Assembly (NCBI GenBank): GCA_021793895.1
Contig: JAJYRW010000055.1
Location: 1-8,382, forward strand
Reading direction: 5' to 3'
DNA: 8,382 nt
Origin: Actinomycetes bacterium
GTDB lineage: Bacteria; Actinomycetota; Actinomycetes; Actinomycetales; JAJYRW01
The translations under genes were made by a program, and so were the position numbers. The notes below the pieces were generated by a model. That model was not told the origin of the DNA, ran no database searches, and saw only the letters and a program-made list of their open reading frames with translations. This document shows, in pieces, positions 854 to 8,382 of this stretch; position 1 is the first letter of the stretch, and each line of letters begins with the position of its first letter.

Positions 854-874
854 CTTGAGTGTTCCAGGCTCAAG
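854..874. promoter_or_regulatory. HAIR element 1 (predicted HspR operator) upstream of dnaK
   Basis: The sequence CTTGAGT-N7-GCTCAAG matches the known actinobacterial HspR inverted repeat CTTGAGT-N7-ACTCAAG at 13 of 14 arm positions, with the exact 7-bp spacer. It lies 27 bp upstream of the dnaK start, between promoter and gene, where bound HspR would block transcription. In Streptomyces and mycobacteria HspR works with DnaK as co-repressor, so dnaK is probably autoregulated by feedback here. The family knowledge is established; binding at this site is inferred. Confidence 0.88.
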
Positions 875-2879: not shown

Positions 2880-2937
2880 CAAATTGCTACCGCGCGAACC
2901 GTTAGCCACAAATTGCTACCGCACGAAGCGTTAGCCG
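2880..2937. repeat. Tandem 29-bp direct repeat (two copies, 26/29 identical), each forming a hairpin
   Basis: Copy 1 is 2880-2908 and copy 2 is 2909-2937; they abut with no spacer and differ at three positions. Each contains a 21-nt imperfect hairpin (2886-2906 and 2915-2935). In copy 2 the 8-bp arms GCTACCGC and GCGTTAGC pair with one mismatch around the 5-nt loop ACGAA. In copy 1 a second mismatch opens the base of the loop. The stop codon of the minus-strand lipoprotein gene (2931-2933) lies inside copy 2. No T-tract follows on either strand. Confidence 0.9.
2886..2935. terminator. Possible bidirectional terminator made of two tandem hairpins
   Basis: The DUF1622 gene (plus) and the lipoprotein gene (minus) converge here, with stops at 2870-2872 and 2931-2933. 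The only secondary structure between them is the pair of 21-nt hairpins in the tandem repeat. Neither is followed by a U-tract, so this would have to be the U-less hairpin type reported in actinobacteria. The position argues for termination; the stem mismatches argue against a strong one. Confidence 0.4.
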
Positions 2938-3401
2938 ACGTCGATATCGGCCAAGAGCAACCAACCACCATCATCAGCGCCACACAGCTCGGAAACTTCC
3001 GGCAAATTCGCTGCCCGTTCCGAACCGGGCAGGTCCAATTCACCGCTGGCAACGACGGTGTCCTGCGACATGACCGTGGCCCCGCTCTCCAAATACACGC
3101 CGGGCTTTTCATTTGCGGAGTAGCCGCCCTCGGAATTCATTGGCCACGCAAGCGCATACTGAGTCTCGTCTTCCTGCAAAACCCAGCAGTCGCCGTCCGC
3201 AATGTGCTCAACCGTTCCCTCGATCACCTTCGAGGGCTTGACTACCGAATTGACGACCGCCAACCGCGGCGGCCCGCCGACCATGGTCACGCGCCCCTCG
3301 GTTACCGAGCAGGCCGCTAAAAATAAAACTGCTCCATTAAGGACGGCGAGGCTCCGGTAGAGACCGCGGCGTTTCCGGGCGTAGGGCTTAGCAGGCGTCA
3401 C
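2931..3401 (-). CDS. Hypothetical small lipoprotein
   Basis: This predicted protein has 156 residues and no family I recognise. A basic N-terminus (KPYARKRR, 5-12) and a hydrophobic stretch (about 18-30) end in the lipobox LAAC, so signal peptidase II should cleave before Cys31 and the mature protein would be anchored to the outer face of the membrane. The mature part is beta-rich (KVIEGTVEHI, CWVLQEDETQYALAWP, PGVYLESGATV, DTVVASGELDL), in a pattern that could be an OB-fold-like barrel; that is only an impression. Cys72 and Cys140 could form a disulphide outside the cell. The start is GTG at 3399-3401 with AAGGA close upstream (3-nt spacer, tighter than usual). The gene is 125 bp downstream of lacI on the same strand, and its stop lies inside the tandem repeat. 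It is probably a separate transcription unit. Confidence 0.75.
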   Translation of the reverse strand: MTPAKPYARKRRGLYRSLAVLNGAVLFLAACSVTEGRVTMVGGPPRLAVVNSVVKPSKVIEGTVEHIADGDCWVLQEDETQYALAWPMNSEGGYSANEKPGVYLESGATVMSQDTVVASGELDLPGSERAANLPEVSELCGADDGGWLLLADIDVG

Positions 3402-3526: not shown

Positions 3527-4573
3527 TTACTGCACTGCGCGGGACGACTCACGCACGACGATCTCCGGACGCATCGTATGGCGTTCGGGTTCTTCACCGT
3601 GCTCACGACGAATGCGGCGCAGCATCATCTCAAACGCAATTCGACCCACGCGCTGGATAGGCAATCGAACAGAGGTTAAAGAGGGAGCTAGATAGGCAGA
3701 AAAGGGGTAATCACCCCAACCAACAACGAGAATGTCATCTGGAACGCTGATCGACCTCTCATGCAGCGCTCTCATTGCTCCCAAAGCATGCAGATCATTG
3801 CCCGTAATGATCGCATCTGGTTTTTGCCCACGATCAAGCAAATCGAGCATCGTCAAATGCGCTTGGTCGGCTAGCCACGGCAGCATTGCGCGGCCCCGTC
3901 GCCGGGAGGATATGTATGTGACAGCATCTTCTGAAGCTGTCACACCCGCATCTTTCAACGCCGCGCGAAAACCCGAGGTTCGATCATCAACAGTCGAGAT
4001 TGCTAGGTCTTCTTCCAATAAAAAGACGTTCCGAGCCCCCTGGTCTAATACGTGCTGGGTCGCTTGGTACATACCAGTGAAATTATCTGTCCGGACCAGA
4101 TCCAGAGCCAGGTCGGGCATTTCTCGGTTGATCGTTACTATCGGCACTTCGGCGTTTACCAAGCGATACCAGGGATTCGTTTTACCTTGGACCGGTGCGA
4201 CAATCGCGCCATCTACGCCAGCACGCAGCATTGCTTGCGCCGCTTCATCTTCCTGCTCAGAAGATTCGTCGGAAGAAAACAGGATTATTGAGTAATCTTC
4301 CTCACCGGCATGCTTTTCAATTTCGCTAATCAAGCCCGCATAAAACGGGTTGGATGGGTTTGAAATTACCATCCCGATAAGCATTCGGGATCCAAGGACT
4401 AGGGACCGGGCATGCGGGTTCGGAACATAGCCGATTCGCTCTGCTTCTAACTGAATTCGCGTCCGGGTCACTTCCCCCACGCCACTCTTCTTGTTAAGTG
4501 CGCGAGAGACCGTATTCACCGATACGCCGAGGGAATCGGCTATGTTCCGTAACGTCGGGCGCTCATTGGGCAT
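3527..4573 (-). CDS. LacI-family transcriptional regulator
   Basis: At 348 residues this has the full length of a LacI/GalR repressor. The N-terminal helix-turn-helix covers residues 7-27 (TLRNIADSLGVSVNTVSRAL). It is followed by the hinge region YVPNPHARSLVLGS (about 49-62) and a periplasmic-binding-protein-like effector domain (about 64-345) with IGMVISNPSNPFYAGL, DGAIVAPVQG and ITGNDLHALGAMRAL. The segment VVGWGDYPFSAYLAPSLTSVR (283-303) corresponds to the usual VGFDD...PPLTTV stretch. The family senses small ligands, mostly sugars, and is released from DNA on binding. The start ATG at 4571-4573 has GGAG 8 nt upstream. It is the last gene of an apparent three-gene operon (25 bp after the 109-residue gene) and probably binds the two palindromes at 5971-5986 and 6106-6121, so repressing itself and the divergent transporter. 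The ligand is unknown. Confidence 0.95.
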   Translation of the reverse strand: MPNERPTLRNIADSLGVSVNTVSRALNKKSGVGEVTRTRIQLEAERIGYVPNPHARSLVLGSRMLIGMVISNPSNPFYAGLISEIEKHAGEEDYSIILFSSDESSEQEDEAAQAMLRAGVDGAIVAPVQGKTNPWYRLVNAEVPIVTINREMPDLALDLVRTDNFTGMYQATQHVLDQGARNVFLLEEDLAISTVDDRTSGFRAALKDAGVTASEDAVTYISSRRRGRAMLPWLADQAHLTMLDLLDRGQKPDAIITGNDLHALGAMRALHERSISVPDDILVVGWGDYPFSAYLAPSLTSVRLPIQRVGRIAFEMMLRRIRREHGEEPERHTMRPEIVVRESSRAVQ

Positions 4574-4598
4574 GCTGGCCGCTCCATGATGTTAATTT

Positions 4599-4928
4599 TT
4601 ACTCTTTAAGTGCCAAATAAATTCTAACCTTCACCCGGCCGCCACCACTGCCAAAAGTGGCACGCACCCGCAACCAATGACCGAAATCGCGCGCCGTCCA
4701 GGAAACTAATCCGTCATCGACTGCTTCTACTGCGCTATCGGGCAGATCAATCCAATGCAAACCGTCGGGCGAGATTTGAGTCGTAAACGATACGGGCGCT
4801 CCCTCGTGCTCGAGGATTTGTGCATACCAGCGCGCTTCTGCTGCCCATGCCACCTCGAAAGGCTCGGTCTCAAAATCCTTTTCAAATGTCGTATTGCGTT
4901 CAAGAACTGCAAGTTGTGACTGTCTCAC
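4599..4928 (-). CDS. Hypothetical 109-residue beta-rich protein, partner of the 323-residue protein
   Basis: I do not recognise this gene with confidence. It is a compact, soluble 109-residue protein without signal peptide or membrane segment. The middle (about 46-60, SFTTQISPDGLHWIDLP) and the end (FGHWLRVRATFG, then VKVRIYLALKE) resemble small beta-sandwich domains with a 'QiSPDG..W' strand pair, as in some phage-tail-like or carbohydrate-associated domains. From memory this could be the DUF6385 type, which I have not checked. The start is GTG at 4926-4928, 7 nt after the stop of the upstream gene and with only a weak Shine-Dalgarno sequence, so translation is probably coupled. No other start codon is usable near the N-terminus. 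The repressor gene begins 25 bp downstream. Co-transcription suggests that it acts with the 323-residue protein. Confidence 0.75.
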   Translation of the reverse strand: MRQSQLAVLERNTTFEKDFETEPFEVAWAAEARWYAQILEHEGAPVSFTTQISPDGLHWIDLPDSAVEAVDDGLVSWTARDFGHWLRVRATFGSGGGRVKVRIYLALKE

Positions 4929-4935
4929 GTTGATA

Positions 4936-5907
4936 TTACCAATCTGCTGAAATGACGACTGTGTCCAGATAGAGAAAATTGCGCTTTCCAGAAAGCGTCC
5001 GCACTGAGAAATAAAAGTTCAAGAGGTTCTCTAATGAGTCGTACCGCTCCTCATATGGCGGGACCGGAACCTCACTCATATCGATGAGCTTATTGTTAAT
5101 TTGGAGCTCGATGTTCTTTCGCTTTTCAGTGTCCATTACCCATCGCAGGTAATGCCAGTTCACCTTCGTAGGAACCTCGTTGTAGCACAGCGTGAAGGGT
5201 TCTCCCACGGTTCTCCAATCCTCCGGATTTGGAGCAGTGAAGTCCGCAGCATACGGCAGCTTTTCGCCCTTACCTTCGAATTGTTCTCGGGGCGTAGGCT
5301 CCGGGACAACTGGGTACATTACCTGTTTCACGAAATTGCCATCGAAATCGGTATTTTGGTAACGCGCTACTGTGTGATACCGCAAACCGTTGTCACCACA
5401 CAGGTCAGTAGCAACGGTAAATGCACCAAACTGGGTCTCCGATGGGTGCGAGTTTCCGTCATATGAAATGTCACCGAAAGAATCTGCATCGGCGCCGCCA
5501 CCGATATTTGTTTCAGACTTATAAGTGAAATAGGCCTCAATCTGCAGTTTGCCACGACCCGACATGGTCAGACGCCTGATCGCGGTCGACGTGTGACCAG
5601 CGTAAGGCCGGGTCGCCAGCTTCAAGGCATAGGTGCCGCTCATCGCACCGTGCGTCCCGACGTCAAAAAAGTTGAGGTTAGAAAGTTGTGGCGGCCGAAA
5701 ATCAGACAGAAAGGCGTCTACGGTGTCCAGGTTTCCCTGGCCGTCGTAATTGCCGTTGAGTTCAACCCAGCCATTTGTTCCCCGGTTGAAATCATCCACG
5801 GTCAAAATCCGAGACAGTGGGTTGAACCGCGACAGGGTTGGGTCCGATGTTCGTAACGCGTCTTTGAAGCTTGCCACTTGCGTTCGATCATCACCATTGA
5901 CGGTCAT
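4936..5907 (-). CDS. Hypothetical 323-residue protein, likely jelly-roll (concanavalin-like) fold, not secreted
   Basis: This is the first gene of the operon that ends in the LacI regulator. It has no signal peptide, lipobox or membrane helix, so it should be cytoplasmic. Alternating beta-like segments suggest a lectin/glucanase-type jelly roll: LTVDDFNRGTNGWVEL (35-50), MSGTYALKLATRP (89-101), GKLQIEAYFTYKSE (119-132), ETQFGAFTVATDL (157-169), then WHYLRWVMDTEKRKNIELQI (251-270) and FLYLDTVVISADW at the C-terminus (311-323). No catalytic Glu/Asp pair of a known glycosidase family is evident. From memory it may belong to an unnamed DUF family (possibly DUF6772), not checked. The ATG at 5905-5907 has AGGAG (5913-5917) 5 nt upstream. 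A LacI-type promoter/operator lies just beyond. A ligand-binding or structural role toward the transported compound is a guess; no function can be assigned. Confidence 0.82.
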   Translation of the reverse strand: MTVNGDDRTQVASFKDALRTSDPTLSRFNPLSRILTVDDFNRGTNGWVELNGNYDGQGNLDTVDAFLSDFRPPQLSNLNFFDVGTHGAMSGTYALKLATRPYAGHTSTAIRRLTMSGRGKLQIEAYFTYKSETNIGGGADADSFGDISYDGNSHPSETQFGAFTVATDLCGDNGLRYHTVARYQNTDFDGNFVKQVMYPVVPEPTPREQFEGKGEKLPYAADFTAPNPEDWRTVGEPFTLCYNEVPTKVNWHYLRWVMDTEKRKNIELQINNKLIDMSEVPVPPYEERYDSLENLLNFYFSVRTLSGKRNFLYLDTVVISADW

Positions 5908-5970
5908 ATTTTCTCCTAACGTTTCCGCCGGGCTCGCTTGCGGTAGCGAACTGAAGGCGCTTGGCTCGAG

Positions 5971-5986
5971 ACATTAACGTTAATGT
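5971..5986. promoter_or_regulatory. Predicted LacI-family operator O1
   Basis: ACATTAACGTTAATGT is a perfect 16-bp palindrome with the central CG typical of LacI/GalR operators. It covers the -10 box of the minus-strand promoter, the classical repressor position. A repressor gene of this family is the third gene of the operon driven by that promoter. Binding is inferred from position and symmetry. Confidence 0.85.
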
Positions 5987-6000
5987 TACGCAACTGTCAA
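5971..6000 (-). promoter_or_regulatory. Promoter of the 323-residue / 109-residue / lacI operon
   Basis: On the minus strand a perfect -35 box TTGACA (6000 down to 5995) is followed after 18 nt by TAATGT (5976 down to 5971), which fits the actinobacterial TANNNT -10 pattern. Transcription would begin around 5963-5965, leaving a leader of about 55-60 nt before the ATG at 5907. The -10 box lies inside operator O1. Confidence 0.72.
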
Positions 6001-6033
6001 GCGCGCATGCTTCCCATCGGAATAAAATGGTTT

Positions 6034-6060
6034 ATGGCTGTATATGTGTGTTCTAGCCAT
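6034..6060. repeat. Inverted repeat ATGGCT-N15-AGCCAT between the two divergent promoters
   Basis: The 6-bp arms at 6034-6039 and 6055-6060 are exactly complementary around an AT-rich 15-bp core. The dyad sits between the two outward -35 boxes, ending 15 bp before the plus-strand one. It could be a site for an activator acting on both promoters, but 6-bp arms can occur by chance. Confidence 0.35.
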
Positions 6061-6075
6061 GTTTTTGGCGAACGC

Positions 6076-6105
6076 TTGACAAGTACGCATGTTGCACGCG
6101 ACACT
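6076..6105 (+). promoter_or_regulatory. Promoter of the ABC importer operon
   Basis: A perfect -35 box TTGACA (6076-6081) is followed after 18 nt by GACACT (6100-6105), a weak -10 that keeps the A at position 2 and the T at position 6. It mirrors the minus-strand promoter: the 9-bp stretch around its -35 (6073-6081) is an exact inverted copy of 5995-6003. The predicted start, near 6112, lies inside operator O2. Confidence 0.65.
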
Positions 6106-6121
6106 GCATTAACGCTCATGT
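6106..6121. promoter_or_regulatory. Predicted LacI-family operator O2
   Basis: GCATTAACGCTCATGT matches O1 at 13 of 16 positions; the half-site CATTAACG is identical and the other half is degenerate. It begins directly after the -10 box of the importer promoter and covers the predicted transcription start. Its centre is 135 bp from that of O1, close to 13 helical turns, so one repressor tetramer, or two dimers, could bridge both sites. Confidence 0.72.
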
Positions 6122-6160
6122 AACGAGGCTTGAGAGATGTCGCAAAAGGAGCGTTCGACG

Positions 6161-6220
6161 ATGAACCGACAGCGCGCACTGACGCAGAATCATGCTGCGC
6201 ACGGTAGAGGTCCGCAATGA
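6161..6220 (+). CDS. Possible 19-codon leader ORF coupled to permease 1
   Basis: An ATG at 6161, with AAGGAG (6146-6151) 9 nt upstream, opens a reading frame of 19 residues (MNRQRALTQNHAAHGRGPQ). Its TGA stop (6218-6220) overlaps the permease start in an ATGA. A second in-frame ATG at 6137, with GAGG at 6125-6128, would give 27 residues. The Shine-Dalgarno sequence is stronger than that of the permease itself (AGAGG at 6206-6210), so ribosomes ending here could re-initiate at 6217. The peptide is basic and resembles no known leader; its codons show no run typical of attenuation. It is either a coupling leader, a remnant left when a binding-protein gene was lost, or chance. Expression is not shown by sequence alone. 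Confidence 0.45.
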   Translation: MNRQRALTQNHAAHGRGPQ

Positions 6221-7140
6221 CGAGTTATTTGATAAAGCGCATTTTGTACTCCCTTTTTGTCCTCTGGGGCGCCGTATCGATCGTCTTTATCGTTCTGCGT
6301 TTGGTGCCTTCGAATCCGGTTGTGATGCAACTTGGAGCCGACTCCACGCCAGAACAACGTGCGGCACTGGCGGCCGAAATGGGGCTTGATAAACCCGTCA
6401 TAGTCCAATACTGGAACTTCTTAACCGATGCGGTTCAACTGGATTTCGGGTCCTCGTATCGTCTGCAACAAGAGGCACTCCCTCTCGTCCTCGAGCGTCT
6501 TCCCGCGACACTGGAACTAGCCGGGGCGGCACTCATCATGGCCCTAATGGTGGGAATCCCGCTAGGCATGATCTCGGCGTTCAATGTAAATCGGGTTCCG
6601 GACCGCATTGTTTCCACCCTCTCTTTAACGGGACAGTCTCTGCCACCTTTTTGGATCGGTATCGTATTAATTTTGGTGTTCGCGCGGGTGTTTGGTGTCC
6701 TACCCAGCGGGGGAACCGGGTCCCTCCTACACATAGTTCTTCCAGCCTTCACACTTGCCTTCCCATTCCTCGCAATATTGACGAGGATGACGCGAAATGG
6801 CCTTTTGGAAGTGCTTGGCGAAGGGTATATACAAACCGCCCGCTCCAAGGGGCTAAAAGAAAGAATCGTCATCGCGCCCCATGCCATCAGGAACGCGCTT
6901 ATCCCGCTTGTGACGGTTGTCGGTGTCCAGTTCGGAATTTTGCTCGCCGGTTCGGTAGTCGTCGAGACAGTCTTTTCCTGGCCGGGAATTGGCCGCATGT
7001 TGATCGATGCCATCAATATGCGTGACTACAACCTGGTGCAAGCAGCTGTTTTGGTGATTGCCATCGGCTTTGTCGTCATAAACCTGATTGTGGATCTGCT
7101 CTATGTCTACCTTGATCCACGAGTGAGGATCACGAAATGA
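6217..7140 (+). CDS. ABC transporter permease, DppB/OppB-like
   Basis: This 307-residue inner-membrane permease is the first of the two subunits that form the channel of a peptide/nickel/opine-type (PepT, family 5 SBP-dependent) ABC importer. Evidence: the N-terminal signature YLIKRILYSLFVLWGAVSIV (4-23), the extracytoplasmic region with MGLDKPVIVQY (55-65) and LDFGSSY (75-81), the EAA coupling loop YIQTARSKGLKE (204-215) with PHAIRNALIP (221-230), and ETVFSWPGIGRM (250-261) near the C-terminus. Six transmembrane segments and a length of 300-340 are usual. The ATG at 6217 has AGAGG 6 nt upstream and overlaps the stop of the possible leader ORF. The gene overlaps the second permease by 4 bp (ATGA). 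Many family members carry peptides, but several carry oligosaccharides; LacI control favours a sugar here. The usual upstream binding-protein gene is absent. Confidence 0.95.
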   Translation: MTSYLIKRILYSLFVLWGAVSIVFIVLRLVPSNPVVMQLGADSTPEQRAALAAEMGLDKPVIVQYWNFLTDAVQLDFGSSYRLQQEALPLVLERLPATLELAGAALIMALMVGIPLGMISAFNVNRVPDRIVSTLSLTGQSLPPFWIGIVLILVFARVFGVLPSGGTGSLLHIVLPAFTLAFPFLAILTRMTRNGLLEVLGEGYIQTARSKGLKERIVIAPHAIRNALIPLVTVVGVQFGILLAGSVVVETVFSWPGIGRMLIDAINMRDYNLVQAAVLVIAIGFVVINLIVDLLYVYLDPRVRITK

Positions 7141-8036
7141 CCACGATCCAAAAAACCCAGATTGCGAACAAGCGCACGGGGCTGCGCAGCGTTTTTAAGA
7201 AAAACCCCGTTGGACGAGGGAGAATCATTGCCGCAATCATCATCGTCAGTATCTATGTACTTGCTGCGATCTTTGGACCGATCCTTACCGGATACCAGGG
7301 CACAGCGACCCGCATGGAAGAGAGACTCCTGCCGCCTGGCAGCACGCTAAGTGATGGCAGCTTCGCACTTTTAGGCACAGACCAAATCGGTCAAGATCTC
7401 TTCGCGCAGATTCTGTCCGGCGCACGAGTCTCAATTGCTGTGGGCCTGGCAACCCTTCTCTTAGCCGGTCTAATTGGTGTGATTTTTGGTCTATTCGCCG
7501 GATTCTTTGGCGGCTGGGTCGATTCCCTCCTGATGCGTCTGGCCGATGTCCAACTAGCGTTCCCCTCGATTCTGCTGGCGATCTTCATCGCTTCCGTTTT
7601 AGGCCCGAGTGTGATCAATGTCGTTATTGTCCTGGCGATTTCTAACTGGGTGCAGTTCGCACGGGTTACCCGGAGTCAGGTTTTGACGCTGAAGAACCGT
7701 GAATATGTGGATGCCTCACGTACGCTCGGCGCCAAAAACCGGCATCTAATTTTTAAGACCATCCTTCCGGGCTGTATCGCGCCGATCACCGTTGTCGCCA
7801 CAGTGGAATTAGGGCAGGTCATCCTACTTGAAGCAGCTTTATCGTTTCTCGGCGTCGGGGTGCCGATAACGGCGCAGAGTTGGGGCAGCACGATTTCCAA
7901 CGGCCGTGATTATCTCGCTGACGCCTGGTGGATTTCCACTTTCCCCGGTGTGGCATTGGCAATTTTGGTCATCACGCTAGGGCTGCTTGGAGATGCCCTA
8001 CGAGACCGCTACGACCCCAAACTAAGGAGTAGATAG
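7137..8036 (+). CDS. ABC transporter permease, DppC/OppC-like
   Basis: This is the second channel subunit of the same importer, 299 residues. It shows the OppC-type N-terminal extension before helix 1 (about 30-52). The hallmark segment LGTDQIGQDLFAQILSGARV (79-98) follows, then the EAA coupling loop YVDASRTLGAKN (190-201) with FKTILPGCIAPI (206-217), and EAALSFLGVGVP followed by SWG (232-250). The C-terminus LRDRYDPKLRSR (288-299) is a variant of the usual LRDxLDP. The gene begins within the last codons of the first permease (ATGA, 7137-7140), so the two are translated in equal amounts. The initial residues (TTIQKTQIANKR) are polar and cytoplasmic. Substrate specificity resides mostly in the missing binding protein and cannot be read here. 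Confidence 0.95.
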   Translation: MTTIQKTQIANKRTGLRSVFKKNPVGRGRIIAAIIIVSIYVLAAIFGPILTGYQGTATRMEERLLPPGSTLSDGSFALLGTDQIGQDLFAQILSGARVSIAVGLATLLLAGLIGVIFGLFAGFFGGWVDSLLMRLADVQLAFPSILLAIFIASVLGPSVINVVIVLAISNWVQFARVTRSQVLTLKNREYVDASRTLGAKNRHLIFKTILPGCIAPITVVATVELGQVILLEAALSFLGVGVPITAQSWGSTISNGRDYLADAWWISTFPGVALAILVITLGLLGDALRDRYDPKLRSR

Positions 8037-8037
8037 C

Positions 8038-8382
8038 GTGACAAAAACTGCGACGAAATCCACTCCTATTCTTCCTGAGCAAACAAGCGCTCCCCTTCTG
8101 GAGGTGCGGAATCTCGGCGTTGAATTCTCAACTGCACGCGGCGCACTTCGCGCTATCGATGACGTGAGTTTCAGTGTGCACGAAGGCGAGACCCTCGCCG
8201 TCCTCGGTGAGTCTGGCAGCGGTAAATCTGTCACAGCCCAGGCAATCATGGGACTACTACCCAAGCACAGCGCCGAAATAACGGACGGCGAAATCCGGTA
8301 CGAAGGTACTGATCTCGTGCAAAAATCCCTGAAATTCGTACGGCAACTGTGCGGCACCGACATCGCTATGGTTTTCCAAGAA
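8038..8382 (+). CDS. ABC transporter ATP-binding protein, DppD/OppD-like, N-terminal part, cut by the right edge
   Basis: The first 115 codons of the importer ATPase are present and the frame is open at the window end. The start is GTG at 8038, one base after the TAG of the second permease and 8 nt after AAGGAG (8024-8029). Typical OppD-type features: LLEVRNLGVEFSTARGALRAIDDVSF (20-45, beta strands before the nucleotide site), the Walker A loop GESGSGKS (57-64), MGLLP (71-75) and the Q-loop glutamine in MVFQE (114). The region 1-19 is a variable polar extension. The signature motif, Walker B and the C-terminal oligopeptide domain lie beyond the edge, as presumably do a second ATPase and the binding protein. 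It powers uptake through the two preceding permeases from the cytoplasmic side of the membrane. Confidence 0.95.
   Translation, partial: MTKTATKSTPILPEQTSAPLLEVRNLGVEFSTARGALRAIDDVSFSVHEGETLAVLGESGSGKSVTAQAIMGLLPKHSAEITDGEIRYEGTDLVQKSLKFVRQLCGTDIAMVFQE

What the first reader, a model, noticed from the sequence alone, without database searches (positions are those of the whole stretch)
3527..8382. LacI-controlled Dpp-type importer divergent from two uncharacterised non-secreted beta-rich proteins: candidate undescribed uptake system
Seen: a divergent locus with a three-gene operon (323-residue protein, 109-residue protein, LacI repressor) facing a Dpp/Opp-like importer, with matching operators at both promoters. 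Known: LacI repressors mostly sense sugars, and family 5 importers carry peptides, nickel or, in some lineages, oligosaccharides. Inferred: the locus imports a sugar or glycoside, and the two unknown proteins act on or bind it in the cytoplasm. Jelly-roll proteins of this look are normally secreted or part of hydrolases; here they have no signal peptide and no evident catalytic pair.
Basis: partly seen in the sequence, partly recalled or inferred. Interest (0 to 1): 0.72.

Follow-up and report, generated by a model that had tools for sequence, protein, structure and literature searches.

The report
LacI regulon with orphan jelly-roll pair
Next to a nutrient-import pump, this actinobacterium carries two proteins of unstudied families that almost always travel together with a sugar-type repressor and an importer, so they very probably form an undescribed system for taking up and breaking down some sugar-like compound.

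Summary
The locus is real. A DUF6772 gene, a DUF6385-like gene and a LacI gene face a Dpp-type importer, and two near-identical operators lie in the shared control region. The arrangement is not local. Around 84 DUF6772 genes examined, a DUF6385 gene follows in 84, a LacI or FadR regulator is near in 83 and a solute importer near in 82; the exceptions sit at contig ends. The operator CATTAACGTTAATG is conserved: 79 sites inside the control regions of 57 loci (45 loci hit) and 3 elsewhere in about 1.04 Mb. The importer is usually Dpp-type but can be CUT1 (MalFG-like) or an MHS-family MFS permease. Both proteins are predicted jelly rolls: DUF6772 has the lectin/GH16-like fold, DUF6385 is a small sandwich. 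DUF6772 keeps 22 invariant residues across subfamilies only about 30-40% identical, which looks like an active site. Type-A relatives usually have phosphoesterase genes near (46 of 57); other relatives have sugar-acid, polyol or pentose enzymes. Best reading: a regulon for importing and cleaving a small, probably anionic sugar or polyol conjugate, with DUF6772-DUF6385 as a two-protein cytoplasmic enzyme. Substrate, reaction and complex are inferred. No paper in the held library names either family.

The parts
4936..5907 (-). DUF6772 protein, 323 aa, predicted ConA-like (lectin/GH16-type) jelly roll, no visible signal peptide; proposed catalytic subunit
4599..4928 (-). DUF6385-like protein, 109 aa, small beta sandwich; proposed partner subunit
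3527..4573 (-). LacI-family repressor, third gene of the operon
   Evidence: PF00356 and PF13377 above cut-off
5971..5986 (.). operator 1, perfect 16-bp palindrome ACATTAACGTTAATGT with central CG
   Evidence: conserved in relatives
6107..6120 (.). operator 2, CATTAACGCTCATG, two mismatches, 96 bp before the permease start
6217..7140 (+). DppB/OppB-type permease, 307 aa
   Evidence: PF00528, PF19300; NCBIfam Opp2B 345.4 bits, just under its cut-off 350
7137..8036 (+). DppC/OppC-type permease, 299 aa, overlaps dppB by 4 bases
   Evidence: PF00528
8038..8382 (+). DppD-type ATPase, N-terminal 115 aa, cut by the window end
   Evidence: PF00005

Best explanation
A LacI-repressed uptake and breakdown regulon. 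Shown from sequence: one operator type lies before a DUF6772-DUF6385-LacI operon and a facing importer, and this set is inherited as a unit across actinobacteria. Inferred: the importer brings in a small sugar or polyol conjugate that is probably anionic (phosphate or carboxylate). In the cytoplasm DUF6772 (jelly roll with invariant K/R and D/E residues, taken to line one pocket) together with the small sandwich DUF6385 forms a two-protein enzyme that makes the committed cleavage or conversion. The substrate or product releases LacI. In many type-A relatives an EEP phosphoesterase with a histidine phosphatase (cytosolic), or a secreted EEP or metallophosphoesterase, removes the phosphate inside or outside the cell.
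For: Neighbourhood tally: 84 of 84 with DUF6385, 83 with regulator, 82 with importer. Operator: 79 sites inside control regions against 3 outside, and at most 1 inside for each of six shuffled palindromes; it is exact in the MHS-type locus L119 and present with 1-2 mismatches before secreted EEP genes. Phosphoesterases near 46 of 57 type-A genes, with stop-start overlaps ATPase/HisP and HisP/EEP in L069, L081, L026 and EEP/DUF6772 in L007. Sugar-type partners elsewhere: CUT1 permeases, MR/MLE dehydratase, SDR, SMP-30, GH51-like, mannitol/arabinitol dehydrogenase family, xylulokinase. Folds. Invariant residues. DUF6772 is the slowest of the four core genes over 40 loci: mean identity 72% against 55-59%.
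Against: No ligand, activity or complex is shown. 11 of 57 type-A loci (including the window as far as it reads), 10 of 18 type-B and all 9 type-C loci show no phosphoesterase. The second catalytic His of HisP is not invariant. After correcting for LacI and DppB, DUF6772 and DUF6385 show no extra co-variation (partial r 0.06). The binding-protein family also serves peptides and nickel. No coordinates were at hand to test whether the invariant residues cluster. Many loci come from a few genera, so the counts are not independent, and most neighbouring genes were not annotated.
Confidence: 0.62

Rival explanations
1. The pair is not an enzyme but a cytoplasmic lectin-like binding or sensing complex, for example a buffer for the imported ligand or a co-regulator of LacI.
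For: Best structural matches of DUF6772 are lectins, those of DUF6385 include TNF-like lectins and CBMs, and the GH16 catalytic motif is absent in 88 of 89 members.
Against: 22 residues, many charged, are invariant although types B and C are only 29-42% identical to the window protein, unusual for a lectin surface. The pair persists when the regulator changes to FadR/GntR and when the transporter family changes. In the MHS-type locus L119 the operon holds only the pair and LacI, facing the permease; its further neighbours were not annotated.
Confidence: 0.17
2. An ordinary peptide or nickel importer whose neighbours are there by chance.
For: The first permease scores nearly at the Opp2B (nickel) model cut-off (345.4 against 350). 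A relative's binding protein (L023) is closest in the PDB to an unnamed substrate-binding protein, then nickel, heme and dipeptide binders. One flank (L087, 6734-7915) looks peptidase-like by eye.
Against: Shared operator and conserved unit across families; replacement of the importer by CUT1 and MHS permeases in the same arrangement. No peptidase or nickel gene was met among the neighbours that I annotated, but most neighbours were not annotated.
Confidence: 0.07
3. A nucleic-acid scavenging system: the EEP and metallophosphoesterases are nucleases or nucleotidases and the pair acts on a nucleoside.
For: EEP proteins include nucleases, and one secreted metallophosphoesterase group carries lamin-tail domains; LacI members can sense nucleosides (general knowledge). 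A phosphoribosyltransferase-family gene lies near the L115 module and a ribose-5-phosphate isomerase B gene near L114.
Against: No nucleoside hydrolase, phosphorylase or deaminase was met among the neighbours that I annotated, though most were not annotated. Partners in other subfamilies are sugar-acid and polyol enzymes.
Confidence: 0.08
4. DUF6772 is a very divergent member of a known jelly-roll enzyme family (GH16 or 3-keto-disaccharide hydrolase, DUF1080).
For: Same general fold; endo-acting O-glycanases (GH16, family label recalled) are among the top Foldseek hits.
Against: No other Pfam family consistently matches 42 diverse members. Profile comparison gives probability 0.14% with DUF1080 and 0.07% with GH16, though with only 6 and 8 sequences. 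Motif absent in 88 of 89.
Confidence: 0.06

Closest known systems
Agrocinopine uptake system acc (AccA with AccBCDE importer, AccF, AccR repressor) of Agrobacterium (PMC4526662, passages read)
   Same: ABC importer for a sugar phosphodiester, whose binding protein is among the PDB relatives of the L023 binding protein; a cytoplasmic enzyme (AccF) that cleaves the import; a repressor answering to the cleavage product
   Different: No DUF6772/DUF6385 is described there in the passages read. The phosphodiester here is only inferred.
C-glycoside deglycosidases CGD/CGE (PMC8563793, PMC10628242, passages read)
   Same: Two-subunit enzyme on a sugar conjugate, one subunit a small beta sandwich; active site made at the interface (analogy only)
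   Different: Their large subunit is a TIM barrel; DUF6772 is a jelly roll. No complex is shown here.
3-keto-disaccharide hydrolases, DUF1080/PF06439 (PMC9007349, passages read)
   Same: Jelly-roll class (recalled), sugar catabolism
   Different: No detectable sequence kinship
X122 domains of Teredinibacter (PMC10916295, passages read)
   Same: Top Foldseek matches; jelly roll with a conserved patch and no known substrate
   Different: Secreted domains of large redox proteins; TM-score only about 0.36 on DUF6772
LacI-type sugar regulons (PMC4052901, passages read)
   Same: Even palindrome with central CG, mostly autoregulated local regulators
   Different: Core enzymes here belong to uncharacterised families

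Membership tests
DUF6772 (PF20562) | Pfam score above curated cut-off | tested here: met
   402.8 bits against 27
DUF6385 (PF19912) | Pfam score above curated cut-off for the window protein | tested here: not met
   20.5 bits against 26.8. Many homologues at about 55-70% identity carry the precomputed PF19912 label, so it is called DUF6385-like.
LacI repressors | LacI HTH plus periplasmic-binding-like domain, and palindromic operator with central CG | tested here: met
   PF00356 42.5 bits (27), PF13377 111.5 (26.5); operator
Dpp/Opp (family 5) ABC importers | Two BPD_transp_1 permeases plus ATPase | tested here: met
   the ATPase is cut by the window end
Dpp/Opp (family 5) ABC importers | SBP_bac_5 binding protein in this organism | not testable with these tools
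   Beyond the window; no genome held. Present in relatives, e.g. L023.
Nickel importers (Opp2B/NikB models) | NCBIfam equivalog cut-off | tested here: not met
   345.4 against 350; NikB 287.6 against 447
GH16 | E-x-D-x(x)-E catalytic motif (recalled) | tested here: not met
   1 of 89 members, at residue 52 of one divergent copy
GH16 | Sequence profile kinship | tested here: inconclusive
   No PF00722 match in 42 members; hhalign probability 0.07% with 8 GH16 sequences; fold class shared
3-keto-disaccharide hydrolase (DUF1080) | PF06439 or profile kinship | tested here: inconclusive
   No PF06439 match in 42 members; hhalign probability 0.14% with only 6 sequences
C-glycoside deglycosidase | TIM-barrel large subunit | tested here: not met
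   DUF6772 model is a jelly roll
Agrocinopine acc system | Cytoplasmic phosphodiesterase with ABC importer and repressor | tested here: inconclusive
   Relatives carry cytosolic EEP plus HisP near the importer; nothing of the kind in the window itself, which ends in dppD

The most novel reading that the evidence does not exclude
DUF6772-DUF6385 is a new class of two-subunit, cytoplasmic carbohydrate-active enzyme (a jelly-roll large subunit completed by a small sandwich) that cleaves phosphate- or carboxylate-bearing sugar or polyol conjugates, for instance fragments of phosphodiester cell-wall polymers. It serves as the exchangeable core of regulons that have adopted three unrelated importer families and several unrelated phosphoesterases.
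Probability: 0.3. Interest if true: 0.77.

Novelty: new variant of a known kind. Interest (0 to 1): 0.56.

Why it matters
Two protein families with hundreds of homologues (881 hits for DUF6772; 167 for the DUF6385-like protein) and no paper in the searched library get a concrete, testable role. They form the fixed core of a LacI/FadR-controlled uptake regulon in Actinomycetota and Alphaproteobacteria. If the phosphoester hint is right, it would reveal how soil actinobacteria feed on phosphate-bearing glycans or sugar phosphodiesters. If the pair is catalytic, it would be a new carbohydrate-active enzyme architecture. The conserved operator and the compact MHS-type loci (permease, pair and repressor) make the substrate findable.

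Tried and rejected

Sequence search of the PDB with either protein: nothing significant (best E 0.07 and 0.23); with the profile A4 only chance hits. Functional hints from single weak hits (archaeal exo-glucosaminidase/beta-galactosidase, CBM6) were rejected as chance.

Mirror-tree test for a specific DUF6772-DUF6385 bond: all four core genes co-vary over 40 loci (r 0.83-0.96); the partial correlation for the pair was 0.06. This is evidence for a unit, not for contact.

Kinship to DUF1080 and GH16 by profile: none seen. A first DUF1080 alignment (A5) used the wrong strand for five of six loci; it was discarded and redone (A6).

The gene caller written here failed on L011 and L075 (wrong strand), and L005 is cut. 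These three, and flank extensions L084-L088, were left out of the first tally. The tblastn tally includes L005, L011 and L075; it leaves out L084-L088 and, by its 75% coverage rule, the broken third copy in L006.

Teichoic or teichulosonic acids as substrate: only a recalled idea. One search listed two papers, not read. Rfam (gathering threshold) and tRNA scans of the window: nothing.
Full report
What is in the window. On the minus strand a 323-aa protein (4936-5907), a 109-aa protein (4599-4928) and a LacI repressor (3527-4573) follow each other with gaps of 7 and 25 bases. On the plus strand two permeases (6217-7140, 7137-8036) and the start of an ATPase (8038-) form a Dpp/Opp-type importer that runs off the window. 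Pfam names the 323-aa protein DUF6772 (402.8 bits, cut-off 27). The 109-aa protein matches DUF6385 below the cut-off (20.5 against 26.8). NCBIfam assigns the permeases to no single substrate: the best model, Opp2B for the first permease, scores 345.4 against a cut-off of 350. No whole genome is held for the window, so the binding protein and second ATPase were not seen.

Control region. Between the two operons lie an exact 16-bp palindrome, ACATTAACGTTAATGT (5971-5986), and a second copy, CATTAACGCTCATG (6107-6120). A promoter scan found no sigma-70-like site there, so promoter positions are not established. Even palindromes with a central CG are the typical LacI operator (PMC4052901, passages read).

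Does the unit recur? A scan of species genomes gave 26 loci. Of 12 of these loci handed to a whole-genome search with the DUF6385-like protein, 11 genomes were held and 11 had a match. Family searches found DUF6772 in 1 of 396 genomes drawn across the phylum of L003 (the one hit being the centre genome itself), 20 of 293 of the order of L005, and 16 of 396 of the order of L006 (in the last two the centre genomes, and also the genomes of L003 and L023, are among the hits). Seven plasmid-collection records also matched: six alphaproteobacterial and one Nonomuraea. Counting with tblastn over the window, L001-L026, L068-L083, L114-L136 and L159-L168 gives 84 DUF6772 genes covered for at least 75%: 57 of the window's type A, 18 of type B, 9 of type C. 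DUF6385 lies downstream on the same strand in 84 of 84; in three type-B loci an FAD-oxidoreductase gene sits between. A LacI gene is within 10.5 kb in 76, a FadR/GntR gene in 7, neither in 1. An importer permease is near in 82. The two without importer (L005, L022, the latter also without regulator) end at contig ends. The labels are by homology within 10.5 kb and may include a non-cognate neighbour, and several genera contribute many loci, so these are not independent events. The earlier tally with called genes gives the same picture: 47 type-A genes, 47 with DUF6385 next, 46 with LacI, 46 with an importer.

Operator conservation. In 57 loci with a type-A control region, sites with at most 3 mismatches to CATTAACGTTAATG number 79 inside those regions (28,294 bases, 45 loci) and 3 in the rest of 1.07 Mb. 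Six shuffled palindromes gave 0 or 1 inside and 0 to 2 outside. The 12 loci without a site by this rule are L001, L005, L008, L009, L017, L018, L020, L024, L025, L123, L129 and L130. L005, L008, L009 and L017 are cut at the locus start, close to where the site would lie. L018 does have a site before its EEP gene that the rule missed. The site is exact in Pseudonocardia (L002) and in Nonomuraea (L119), where an MHS-type MFS permease stands in for the ABC importer. It lies 27-101 bases before the secreted EEP gene in six Actinomadura loci (L007, L012, L013, L014, L016, L018) and two Streptomyces loci (L019, L022); L011 has it in the same place but its genes were miscalled. So the same site precedes the pair, different importers and an extracellular esterase. 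In one search no type-B or type-C gene had a site with at most 3 mismatches in the 350 bases upstream, as expected if they answer to other regulators.

Importers and partners. Type A: Dpp-type in 49 of 57 (two of these with CUT1 genes also near), MHS in 4 (one with CUT1 near), CUT1 only in 2, none in 2. Type B: Dpp in 8 of 18 (one with CUT1 near), CUT1 and/or MHS in the other 10. Type C: CUT1 in 9 of 9. Two MHS proteins scanned score best against the metabolite/H+ symporter and shikimate transporter models, below the cut-offs. In the type-A loci 46 of 57 have a phosphoesterase near: cytosolic EEP (PF03372) with a histidine phosphatase, a secreted EEP, or a 1,000-1,450-aa apparently secreted metallophosphoesterase-like protein with Laminin-G or lamin-tail domains. 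Pfam's Metallophos model itself matched only the L131 protein; the others are linked to it by blastp. HisP overlaps the second ATPase gene, and EEP overlaps HisP, by 4 bases each in L069, L081 and L026, and the secreted EEP overlaps DUF6772 in L007, so in these they belong to the operon. EEP motif residues are invariant (19 cytosolic, 14 secreted aligned); the second catalytic His of the histidine phosphatase is not (20 aligned) (motif positions recalled). Type B: 8 of 18 with a phosphoesterase; type C: 0 of 9. Sugar-related partners of other loci: mannitol/arabinitol dehydrogenase family, xylulokinase (two of four FGGY kinases scanned above the XylB cut-off), GH51-like, Zn-dependent dehydrogenase, FAD-oxidoreductase, DHDPS-type aldolase. 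In the six alphaproteobacterial plasmids the operon is MR/MLE dehydratase, in some CUT1 permeases, DUF6772, DUF6385, in some SDR, beside a FadR/GntR gene. I read from this that the pair is the constant core and that importer, regulator and accessory enzymes are exchanged.

Mechanism. Shown: conserved operator, conserved gene order, and a pair without visible signal peptides that is predicted to be two jelly rolls. Inferred: import of a small sugar or polyol conjugate. The exchange for CUT1 and MHS permeases argues against long oligomers and peptides; phosphoesterases in the operon and the invariant basic residues argue for an anionic group. Further inferred: cleavage or conversion by the DUF6772-DUF6385 pair, and release of LacI by substrate or product. 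The agrocinopine system is the nearest working parallel for import and regulation (PMC4526662, passages read). C-glycoside deglycosidases are the nearest for a two-protein enzyme with a small beta-sandwich subunit (PMC8563793 and PMC10628242, passages read). Neither is claimed as kin.

Novelty. Neither DUF name nor Pfam accession occurs in the 5.39 million open papers searched; most subscription papers and preprints are not in that library. As a LacI-controlled uptake locus it is a known kind. The core pair is uncharacterised, and its recurrence with three importer families is the new point.

Noticed in passing
window 854-874 and 917-937: Two CTTGAGT-N7-GCTCAA(G/C) inverted repeats before the dnaK gene (minus strand, from about 826), resembling HAIR/HspR sites (motif recalled, not tested).
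   Followed up: no
window 2880-2936: Imperfect direct repeat of 28 nt (93%) right after the DUF1622 gene.
   Followed up: no
window 2931-3401 (-): 156-aa protein with a lipoprotein-like N-terminus (by eye) and no Pfam match.
   Followed up: no
L131, L135, L136, L122-L124, L129, L004: Large metallophosphoesterase-like proteins (1,063-1,453 aa where not cut), several with Laminin-G or lamin-tail domains, beside DUF6772 modules.
   Followed up: partly
L003, L131-L133, L135, L136: A 260-aa esterase-like protein (PF00756 tested in L136 only) accompanies type-B DUF6772 modules with CUT1 importers.
   Followed up: partly
L010, L015, L026: Type-B DUF6772 and DUF6385 flank an FAD-oxidoreductase gene (PF12831 tested in L015); in L015 a GDPD-family gene (PF03009, cut) follows.
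   Followed up: partly
L006 14643-15533: A third DUF6772 copy in two pieces with an in-frame stop; described only.
   Followed up: no
   Followed up: partly
L004 and 9 further loci: A related regulator gene (IclR-type by PF09339 in L069) stands between the importer and the pair, a possible second regulator.
   Followed up: no
L121 7926-9437: A sulfatase-like gene (CSPSR motif, by eye) sits between the DUF6385 and LacI genes.
   Followed up: no
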